The notes under the pieces are model-generated. The model was not told the DNA's origin, ran no database searches, and saw only the letters and a list, made by a program, of their open reading frames with translations. Positions 54,861 through 59,009 of a DNA stretch of 64,000 nt are shown here, piece by piece (the stretch's first letter is position 1; the number at the start of each line of letters is the position of its first letter). The position numbers and the translations under genes were made by a program. The stretch lies in contig NC_007760.1 of NCBI RefSeq assembly GCF_000013385.1, positions 186,001 through 250,000 on the forward strand. Direction: 5' to 3'. This stretch comes from Anaeromyxobacter dehalogenans 2CP-C. Lineage in GTDB: Bacteria; Myxococcota; Myxococcia; Myxococcales; Anaeromyxobacteraceae.

Positions 54861-54983
54861 GTGCCGCGCGCCTCCGGAGCGGTCCGTGCAGCCGGCCGCT
54901 CGGCCCGGGAACGTTCGCCCGGGCCGGGCCGGCCGCAAGCTCCGCGCAGGTGCGCCTCCGGGGACCCGCCGGGCGGACCCGGC

Positions 54984-56675
54984 TCAGAACCCGTGGCAGG
55001 TGCCGCAGGTGCCCCAGCCCGTGTGCGGTGCGCCCCAGGTCACCTGCGCCTGCTGGAGGTGGCAGGCGACGCTCGAGCAGGTCTTCGTGGCCGGGTCGTA
55101 GCGCGCGCTGCCGAGCTCCATCGACAGCGTGGCCCCCTCCATCACCGCGCCCGGGATGGCCGGGTCCGGGAACGCGATCCCGCCGGGCGACGCGTGCGTC
55201 ACCCAGTACGGCCGCGTGGGCCGGTCCGGGGCCGGCGGCAGCCAGGGGAGCTCCGGCAGCGCGGCGCGCGCGTCGAACGCCACGTCTCGCCGCCCGTTCA
55301 CGTGGCGGAGCGGCGCCACCGCGCCGCGTCCCGAGGCCGCGGCGCCCCCGTGGCAGGCCGCGGACGAGCAGCCGTAGCCGAGCAGGCCGCCCGGCAGCGC
55401 GTACGTGCCGGTGGTGTCGAGCCAGTAGAAGCCGGAGGGCCCGGCGCCGGCGGTGGTCTCGGCGTGGCACGACTGGCAGGTGATGGGCGCGGCGTCCTCG
55501 TCGGGCGACCAGCCGCCGCCGTGCTTCGAGGTGTGCCACGGGCCCGGGAGGCCGCCGAAGTGGCCCCACTCGTAGCCGTCGGTGGAGAGGCCGAGGTGAC
55601 CGTTCGCGTCCGCGGCGGCGGGGCCGCCGGTCGGGTAGGCGGGCGGGTTGCCGTGGCACCCGGCGCAGCCGAGCGCGCCCGGCGGCGCGGTCCACGCCGG
55701 CGCGTCCGCGTACGCCGGGACCTCCTGGCCGCTCGAGTGGCAGTAGGCGCCGGCGCAGGTGCCGCTGGCCGCGTCGTAGCCCGCGCCCGCGGCGTTGCGC
55801 GCCTTGAGCGTGCCGGCGGGCGCGCCCTCCGGCGCGAGCACCACGTCCACCCGGCCGTCCATGTGCCGGGCCAGGTCGAGCGGATGGCACTGGCCGCAGC
55901 CGAACGCGTACGCGGCGCCGCCGTCCGGCGACAGGTCCTCGAGCACCGTGAGCGCGCCGTAGGCCGGGGACGCGCCGGCGGGCACGGTCGCGTGGAGCGC
56001 GTGCGCGCCGGAGGCGGGCGGCGCGCCGTGGCAGCCGCCGCACGCGCCGCCGGCCACGTCCACCCGGCCGTCGAGGTGGTGGCCTCCCGCGACGTCGATC
56101 GCGCCGGACGCGAGCACGGTGTCGGGGTGGCAGAGGGTGCAGCGCGAGGCGAGCTCGCCCTGCGGGTGGCCGGCGCTCGTGGGCGGCGAGGCGTGGCAGC
56201 CGTCGCAGCCGAGCTGCGTCCCGTCCACCCGGGTCCACACCGGCGCGGTCGCGGCGCCGCCGGCGGCGAGCGTGGCGCCGTGGCAGTACGTGCCGGCGCA
56301 GCGCGGCCCGCCCGCCGCGTCCGGCTCCCACGCCGGGGCCGCGCCCGCGCGGCGGGCCTCCTCGCCGAACGCCACGCGCGCGACGCCGTCCACGTGCGCG
56401 AGATCCGTCGGCACGACGTGGCACGCCTCGCAGCGGAGGGGGCCGGCGACGCGCCCGCCGGCGACGTGGGCCCGGTGGGCCCCGACGCCGCGGTCGCTGG
56501 TGGCGGTCGCCCCCCGCGCCGAGCGCGGCGGGGCGGCGCTGCCGTCGCCGCCGTGGCAGCGCAGGCACCGCTCGGTCGCGTCGCCCTCCGCGACGCGGGC
56601 CCGGTCGCAGCCGGCGGCGAGGCACAGCGCGAGCGCGGCGGCGAGGGGGAGGTGCGGGACGAGGCGCGGGCGCAT
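54984..56675 (-). CDS. Thirteen-heme c-type cytochrome lipoprotein with CXXCH and CX4CH motifs
   Basis: The 563-residue protein has a lipoprotein signal (LALCLAAGC) and thirteen heme-attachment motifs in order: CLRCH, CEACH, CAGTYCH, CDGCH, CTLCH, CGGCH, CGQCH, CAGAYCH, CAGCH, CQSCH, CSSAACH, CSSVACH and CGTCH. Four are of the CX4CH type found in Geobacter and Anaeromyxobacter CXXXXCH/CXXCH proteins. It is expected on the periplasmic or outer surface of the envelope, passing electrons to extracellular or membrane acceptors such as iron oxides during anaerobic respiration. An FNR-like site lies 61 nt upstream of the ATG. Confidence 0.9.
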   Translation of the reverse strand: MRPRLVPHLPLAAALALCLAAGCDRARVAEGDATERCLRCHGGDGSAAPPRSARGATATSDRGVGAHRAHVAGGRVAGPLRCEACHVVPTDLAHVDGVARVAFGEEARRAGAAPAWEPDAAGGPRCAGTYCHGATLAAGGAATAPVWTRVDGTQLGCDGCHASPPTSAGHPQGELASRCTLCHPDTVLASGAIDVAGGHHLDGRVDVAGGACGGCHGAPPASGAHALHATVPAGASPAYGALTVLEDLSPDGGAAYAFGCGQCHPLDLARHMDGRVDVVLAPEGAPAGTLKARNAAGAGYDAASGTCAGAYCHSSGQEVPAYADAPAWTAPPGALGCAGCHGNPPAYPTGGPAAADANGHLGLSTDGYEWGHFGGLPGPWHTSKHGGGWSPDEDAAPITCQSCHAETTAGAGPSGFYWLDTTGTYALPGGLLGYGCSSAACHGGAAASGRGAVAPLRHVNGRRDVAFDARAALPELPWLPPAPDRPTRPYWVTHASPGGIAFPDPAIPGAVMEGATLSMELGSARYDPATKTCSSVACHLQQAQVTWGAPHTGWGTCGTCHGF

Positions 56676-56729
56676 GGGCGGCTCCGGGGCGGGGGTCCAC
56701 CCACCGTGCCGCGTCGGGCGCGCCGCGCC

Positions 56730-56743
56730 GTGACGGTCGTCAA
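56730..56743. promoter_or_regulatory. FNR/DNR-like site upstream of the multiheme cytochrome
   Basis: On the minus strand this reads TTGAC-GACC-GTCAC, nine of ten bases of the TTGAC-N4-GTCAA palindrome. Its centre is 61.5 nt upstream of the cytochrome ATG at 56675. Confidence 0.5.
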
Positions 56744-56780
56744 GCGCGCGGACGGCGCGTGTGTGCGCGCCTGCGCGCGC

Positions 56781-58995: not shown

Positions 58996-59009
58996 TTGAT
59001 TCTCGTCAA
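58996..59009 (+). promoter_or_regulatory. FNR/DNR-like site upstream of nifJ
   Basis: TTGAT-TCTC-GTCAA matches TTGAY-N4-GTCAA perfectly and is centred 67.5 nt upstream of the nifJ ATG. It is the best example of a motif repeated at 34684 and 56730. Confidence 0.55.

What the first reader, a model, noticed from the sequence alone, without database searches (positions are those of the whole stretch)
54984..56675. Thirteen-heme lipoprotein cytochrome with four CX4CH sites
The mix of nine CXXCH and four CX4CH motifs in one lipoprotein is restricted to metal-reducing lineages and may need specialised heme attachment. Isolation from other cytochrome genes and an upstream FNR-like site mark it as a candidate extracellular electron-transfer component.
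Basis: partly seen in the sequence, partly recalled or inferred. Interest (0 to 1): 0.5.

Follow-up and report, generated by a model that had tools for sequence, protein, structure and literature searches.

The report
Modular 13-heme lipoprotein cytochrome
This gene makes a probably membrane-anchored protein carrying thirteen electron-relaying heme groups; it is built from a five-heme unit that relatives repeat up to ten times plus a fixed eight-heme end, and its promoter carries an oxygen-regulator-type site shared with other electron-export genes, so it is probably an anaerobic electron wire whose length evolves like an accordion.

Summary
In detail: one 563-aa lipoprotein-like ORF with nine CX2CH and four CX4CH motifs, alone in its neighbourhood. 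It belongs to the known CxxxxCH/CxxCH cytochrome family TIGR01904. The protein is one pentaheme module plus an octaheme C-terminal "cap". The cap was seen in 11 of 24 Anaeromyxobacteraceae genomes. In the genus, nine complete genes carry 0, 1, 8 or 10 modules before the same cap (8, 13, 48, 58 hemes). Each module has five motifs and five near-invariant other histidines; each cap eight and eight, which fits all-bis-His electron transfer. Linker lengths swap (CX2/CX3/CX4) at homologous sites, so CX4CH needs no special explanation. The FNR-like site is better than claimed: TTGAY-N4-RTCA occurs at 38 places, mostly intergenic, ahead of seven multiheme cytochrome genes, and recurs 57-58 nt upstream of the giant relatives. 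"Restricted to metal-reducing lineages" is not supported (65 of 195 Myxococcota genomes). One close relative lacks the gene. Location, expression and partners are untested. New variant of a known kind.

The parts
54984..56675 (-). 13-heme c-type cytochrome gene, 563 aa plus stop
   Evidence: TIGR01904 121.7 bits against cut-off 27; PF14522 and PF09698 above cut-off
56607..56675 (-). signal peptide with lipobox-like LAAG-C23
   Evidence: read from sequence; Cys23 invariant in the three 13-heme orthologues of A1
56043..56567 (-). pentaheme module (residues 37-211; hemes 2-2-4-2-2), the unit repeated 8-10 times in giant relatives
54987..56042 (-). octaheme C-terminal cap (residues 212-563; hemes 2-2-4-2-2-4-4-2)
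56280..56300 (-). CX4CH heme site, residues 126-132 (CAGTYCH)
   Evidence: homologous site is CX3CH in some giant modules
55737..55757 (-). CX4CH heme site, residues 307-313 (CAGAYCH)
   Evidence: CX4CH in all 21 caps aligned
55350..55370 (-). CX4CH heme site, residues 436-442 (CSSAACH); CX2CH in most relatives
55059..55079 (-). CX4CH heme site, residues 533-539 (CSSVACH)
56730..56743 (-). FNR-type operator TTGAC-N4-GTCAC, 54 nt upstream of the ATG
58996..59009 (+). second FNR-type site (TTGATTCTCGTCAA) at the start of the pyruvate:ferredoxin oxidoreductase gene; same predicted regulon, separate gene

Best explanation
An anaerobically induced, lipid-anchored electron-transfer protein. After Sec export and lipidation (inferred from the N-terminus) thirteen hemes are attached to CX2CH and CX4CH sites by the ordinary System II lyases (inferred). 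Each heme iron has a second histidine available (13 motif histidines and 13 conserved others: conservation shown, ligation inferred), so the protein has no free iron site and works as a conductor or store rather than an enzyme. The N-terminal pentaheme module is a repeatable segment of wire; the octaheme cap is the fixed, family-specific end, likely the docking or discharge end (inferred). An FNR/CRP-type regulator acting at TTGAY-N4-RTCA would switch it on without oxygen together with OmcA/MtrC-type decahemes, a c7, a NiFe hydrogenase and PFOR (sites shown, regulation inferred), which makes a role in anaerobic electron export the most likely one.
For: Motifs and family. Modules and cap. Histidines: five non-motif His in 110-111 of 111 module rows; eight in the cap, seven in 21 of 21 and one in 19 of 21; of the 30 His of the protein only H8, H199, H494 and H551 fall outside the 13+13. 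Solitary and syntenic next to rsfS-proA also in another genus (G041). FNR-type site: 38 distinct places in the genome against 10 for the reversed control pattern; 6 of 38 against 9 of 10 inside coding-like frames; seven multiheme cytochrome genes within about 235 nt downstream, three of them matching the OmcA/MtrC profile (one above, two below its cut-off) and one c7-like (below cut-off); hydrogenase small subunit, acetate kinase, PFOR and PPDK genes also downstream of sites. A site with at most one mismatch in 7 of 13 related promoters; shuffles mean 0.044, most 2.
Against: No expression, location or redox data. The site is absent upstream of the A. oryzae orthologue and of all three 8-heme forms (best 4 mismatches). 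The gene is absent from G001, so that lineage does without it. No porin or other cytochrome adjacent. The full-length structure model failed (pLDDT 41); the module model (76.7) matches no solved structure, so heme stacking is not shown. The candidate regulator falls far below curated Fnr cut-offs. Several genes behind the sites (malate synthase, hemerythrin, unknown) do not speak for anaerobiosis.
Confidence: 0.55

Rival explanations
1. Periplasm-facing electron buffer: the same wire anchored in the inner leaflet of the outer membrane or in the inner membrane, storing electrons (the capacitor idea printed for the 40-heme protein of this species) rather than acting at the cell surface.
For: No porin partner next to the gene. 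Asp at +2 after the lipobox Cys in all three 13-heme orthologues is the E. coli inner-membrane signal (passages of PMC3222651). The capacitor idea is in PMC2330069 (passages).
Against: In Myxococcus xanthus the inner-membrane signal is Lys+2 (8 of 12), absent here, and Ala+7, found in 7 of 10 extracellular-matrix lipoproteins, is present in the window protein and in PSR-1 (read). Ala+7 is not kept in A. oryzae or in the giants.
Confidence: 0.3
2. Terminal reductase: one heme has a free or replaceable iron site and reduces a soluble acceptor.
For: Large family-specific cap with conserved non-heme stretches (FYWLDTTG, RPYW).
Against: Eight conserved spare histidines for eight cap hemes; no catalytic cytochrome family matched above cut-off.
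Confidence: 0.08
3. A dispensable relic: a gene being lost in the genus, retained without present function.
For: Absent from G001; reduced to the 8-heme cap in G004, G005, G008.
Against: Open frame with all motifs intact in orthologues at 93 and 62% identity and in another genus; all heme and ligand positions conserved; operator block identical in PSR-1 within a diverged intergenic stretch.
Confidence: 0.05

Closest known systems
CxxxxCH/CxxCH domain c-type cytochromes (TIGR01904, PF09698), named after Geobacter
   Same: Above curated cut-offs, six matched stretches; same CX4CH...CX2CH pairing.
   Different: The family model is a short domain; here it is part of a fixed pentaheme module plus an octaheme cap that no family model found here describes as a unit.
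The 40-heme cytochrome of A. dehalogenans 2CP-C (PMC2330069, passages read)
   Same: The 39-motif paralogue at G000:C1:3500350-3504309 has modules 43-56% identical to this one and a one-mismatch FNR-type site 65 nt upstream. That it is the printed 40-heme protein is my inference.
   Different: It has no cap (one search finds the cap once in G000).
Tandem c7-type polymers of Geobacter such as GSU1996 (recalled, no call)
   Same: Length by repeating a small heme module.
   Different: Triheme c7 unit, no CX4CH, no cap (recalled).
Porin-cytochrome (Pcc/Mtr) conduits (PMC4245776, passages read)
   Same: Predicted co-regulation with OmcA/MtrC-type genes.
   Different: No porin or partner cytochrome beside the gene; no match to OmcA/MtrC models above cut-off.

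Membership tests
TIGR01904 / PF09698 CxxxxCH-CxxCH cytochromes | Score above the curated cut-off | tested here: met
   121.7 bits against 27; 43.3 against 21.7
TIGR01904 / PF09698 CxxxxCH-CxxCH cytochromes | Covalent heme at CX4CH sites | not testable with these tools
   sequence only
Lipoproteins (type II signal) | Hydrophobic signal followed by lipobox Cys | tested here: inconclusive
   LAAG-C23 read by eye; Cys kept in the 13-heme orthologues; no predictor run
OmcA/MtrC decaheme family (TIGR03507) | Profile match above cut-off | tested here: not met
   TIGR03507 not listed at E up to 10; PF22113 12.4 bits against 30
Porin-cytochrome (Pcc/Mtr) conduit | Gene beside an outer-membrane porin and a partner cytochrome | tested here: not met
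   neighbours are RsfS, methyltransferase, EamA, protein kinase; no other frame with two or more heme motifs in the window
Polymerised cytochrome nanowires (OmcS/OmcE/OmcZ type) | Sequence or fold kinship | tested here: inconclusive
   no PDB sequence match at E up to 1; module model without match, loop-rich and of middling confidence
FNR-type regulon | TTGAY-N4-RTCA operator at promoter distance | tested here: met
FNR-type regulon | O2-sensing Fe-S regulator that binds it | tested here: inconclusive
   L249:1477-2133 has Crp/Fnr domains, an ExxSR-like recognition helix and clustered Cys (read; E. coli pattern recalled), but 21.5 bits against 228 for the Fnr model
FNR-type regulon | Oxygen-dependent expression | not testable with these tools
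   no expression data

The most novel reading that the evidence does not exclude
A genetically adjustable wire: one cytochrome family keeps an octaheme end and an anaerobic operator and changes its length in whole pentaheme steps by tandem duplication in the middle of the array, so that species of one genus carry natural 8-, 13-, 48- and 58-heme versions of the same electron conductor.
Probability: 0.3. Interest if true: 0.72.

Novelty: new variant of a known kind. Interest (0 to 1): 0.5.

Why it matters
Why cytochromes with dozens of hemes exist (wire or store) is open; the capacitor idea was printed for this very species (PMC2330069, passages). A series of natural lengths sharing one cap, differing by whole modules, lets conductance, charge capacity and reach be measured against length. 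The operator series also gives a testable candidate anaerobic regulon for Anaeromyxobacter, which ties this orphan cytochrome to hydrogenase, PFOR and OmcA/MtrC-type genes.

Tried and rejected
Specialised heme attachment: rejected as needless, because the same heme position is CX4CH in the window protein and CX2CH in most relatives (cap heme 6: CX4 in 5 of 21 full caps, CX2 in the other 16) and CX4 or CX3 in modules. A dedicated lyase is not excluded.

Strict 8+5n rule for the whole family: it holds for the nine complete genes of G000, G002, G004, G005, G006 and G008 (three of 13, three giants, three of 8) and for the two genes of the G007 MAG that hold the full cap; outside the genus the part before the cap holds 2, 2, 4, 4, 4, 4, 5, 5, 7 and 8 heme positions in ten proteins, so the rule is genus-wide only.

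Full-length structure: mean pLDDT 41, not used. Cap tree: many deep forks open, so the order of gain and loss of modules is not settled; that 13 hemes is old at the syntenic locus rests on G002 and G041.

Locus tags and expression: the searches gave no passage naming this gene; the 2012 proteomic study cited in PMC4245776 was not seen.

The rough binomial for cytochrome promoters (1.3e-5) used six of 40 downstream genes and 57 of 4346 genes; 57 is from PMC2330069, 4346 is recalled and 40 is my rounded count, so it is an order of magnitude only.

Full report
What is there. The ORF at 54984-56675 (minus strand) encodes 563 residues with nine CX2CH and four CX4CH motifs in the order 2-2-4-2-2-2-2-4-2-2-4-4-2; shuffles give 0.06 and 0.07 on average. 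It scores 121.7 bits against the cut-off of 27 for TIGR01904, with six stretches, and also passes PF14522 and PF09698. No solved structure matches by sequence. Its neighbours are RsfS, an aldehyde-dehydrogenase-family protein that I read as ProA, a methyltransferase, an EamA transporter, a protein kinase and, further on, pyruvate:ferredoxin oxidoreductase; no other frame in the window has two or more heme motifs.

Which genome. G000 is one contig of 5,013,479 bases. PMC2330069 gives 5.01 Mb for A. dehalogenans 2CP-C (passages); that the exact size is that of 2CP-C is recalled. G001 (5,029,329) and G005 (5,277,990) look like 2CP-1 and Fw109-5 by recalled sizes.

Two building blocks. The first five hemes (residues 37-211) are a module of about 165-175 residues; the last eight (212-563) are a cap. 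In G004, G005 and G008 a second locus carries giant proteins of 1762-2092 residues (open frame) that end in the same cap, preceded by 8, 10 and 10 modules: 48, 58 and 58 hemes counting CX3CH. At the locus syntenic with the window (kinase - cytochrome - proA) the same three genomes have a cap-only, 8-heme form. G000, G006 and G002 have the 13-heme form there (93 and 62% identity), and G041 of another genus has a 13-heme form beside rsfS. G001 lacks the gene: 54961-56780 of the window corresponds to 9 bases there (flanking genes). G003 could not be judged at this locus because the flanking genes lie on separate contigs; no cap was found in it.

Accordion growth. In the giants the outer modules (1, 2, 3 and the last) are mostly most like the module at the same end in the other species, while inner modules are most like each other: G005 modules 4-8 form a supported group (100/97) and reach 96% DNA identity; G004 5-6 and G008 5-6 reach 95 and 93%. 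So the middle has been duplicated, or homogenised, separately in each lineage. Outside the genus the part before the cap does not follow the five-heme step.

Spread. The cap was found in 11 of 24 Anaeromyxobacteraceae genomes. The module is far wider: 396 good copies in the 75 loci before thinning, mostly Myxococcota MAGs, with open frames of about 80 motifs (L126, L098). TIGR01904 passes its cut-off in 65 of 195 Myxococcota genomes, 24 of them the 24 of Anaeromyxobacteraceae, and in 0 of 14 controls. 'Restricted to metal-reducing lineages' is therefore not supported, though what those uncultured organisms respire is unknown.

Ligands. In 111 aligned modules five histidines outside the motifs are kept in 110 or 111 rows (H67, H70, H94, H170, H200); in 21 aligned caps eight are kept, seven in all 21 (H225, H228, H271, H360, H372, H385, H458) and H381 in 19. 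Thirteen motif histidines plus thirteen others account for 26 of the 30 histidines; H8, H199, H494 and H551 are not conserved this way. This fits bis-His ligation of every heme and hence electron transfer rather than catalysis. The module model (pLDDT 76.7) had no match in the PDB, and the full-length model failed, so heme stacking is inferred.

Linker length. Cap heme 6 is CX4CH in G000, G006, G002 and two other proteins and CX2CH in the other 16 full caps; cap heme 7 is CX4CH but CX3CH in one, cap heme 8 CX3CH in one; module heme 3 is CX4CH or CX3CH. Papers count CX2-4CH sites together (PMC5566968, PMC10734462 and PMC4222556, passages). Special attachment is thus not needed; three ResB-type and four CcsA-type loci leave it possible.

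The FNR-like site. TTGACGACCGTCAC lies 54 nt before the ATG and is kept letter for letter in PSR-1 inside a diverged stretch. In the genome TTGAYNNNNRTCA has 51 matches at 38 distinct places; the reversed pattern has 11 at 10. Six of 38 lie inside coding-like frames against nine of ten controls (two of the six, L207 and L209, are frames that open upstream of the likely start). Seven multiheme cytochrome genes have a site within about 235 nt upstream: the window gene, a tetraheme with two sites (L087/L215), a c7-like triheme (L217), a nonaheme (L254), and three lipoprotein-like proteins that match the OmcA/MtrC profile, L252 above the cut-off (319.7 against 209.3), L253 and L255 below it (128.4, 69.6). 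Other sites lie upstream of genes for a NiFe hydrogenase small subunit, an Oxidored_q6 protein, acetate kinase, PFOR, PPDK, UbiD, malate synthase and a hemerythrin, and of genes that do not speak for anaerobiosis. The three giants carry TTGATCGCTGTCAT, TTGATCGCTGTCAC and TTGATCGCAGTCAC 57-58 nt before the ATG; G041 and the 39-heme paralogue have one-mismatch sites; A. oryzae, the three 8-heme forms and two further paralogues do not: seven of 13 promoters in all, against a mean of 0.044 and at most 2 of 13 in 3000 shuffled sets. A Crp/Fnr-type protein with an ExxSR-like helix and clustered cysteines exists (L249), but curated Fnr models score it far below cut-off.

Location. Cys23 is followed by DRARVA: Asp+2 (E. 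coli inner-membrane signal) and Ala+7 (seen in 7 of 10 M. xanthus matrix lipoproteins; PMC3222651, passages). A. oryzae and the giants do not keep Ala+7, so location is undecided.

Verdict. Observation confirmed; interpretation partly supported. It is a member of a known cytochrome family in a modular arrangement that I did not find described, best read as an anaerobically induced, all-bis-His, lipid-anchored conductor of adjustable length. Listings of the library searches made here and the passages read showed nothing naming this gene, this module-plus-cap arrangement or this operator set; most subscription journals are not held.

Noticed in passing
window 58996-59009: TTGATTCTCGTCAA, a full FNR-type dyad, lies between the protein kinase gene and the pyruvate:ferredoxin oxidoreductase gene.
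   Followed up: partly
L249:1477-2133 (G000:C1 near 1541184-1541381): Crp/Fnr-type regulator with CGSC...C cysteines and an ETLSR recognition helix, a candidate reader of the operator.
   Followed up: partly
G000 genome, 38 places listed: Candidate anaerobic regulon with OmcA/MtrC-type decahemes, c7, NiFe hydrogenase, acetate kinase, PFOR, PPDK, UbiD.
   Followed up: partly
L126:5999-14878, L098:5234-13852: Open frames of 2959 and 2872 residues in uncultured Myxococcota with about 80 heme motifs in tandem pentaheme modules.
   Followed up: no
L043 and L045 (giant cytochromes): CX4CH of module heme 3 has become CX3CH (CTNYCH) in several copies, a natural linker-length change at a fixed heme site.
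   Followed up: partly
window 54961-56780 against L070: G001 has 9 bases in place of 1820: the cytochrome gene with its promoter is cleanly missing.
   Followed up: yes
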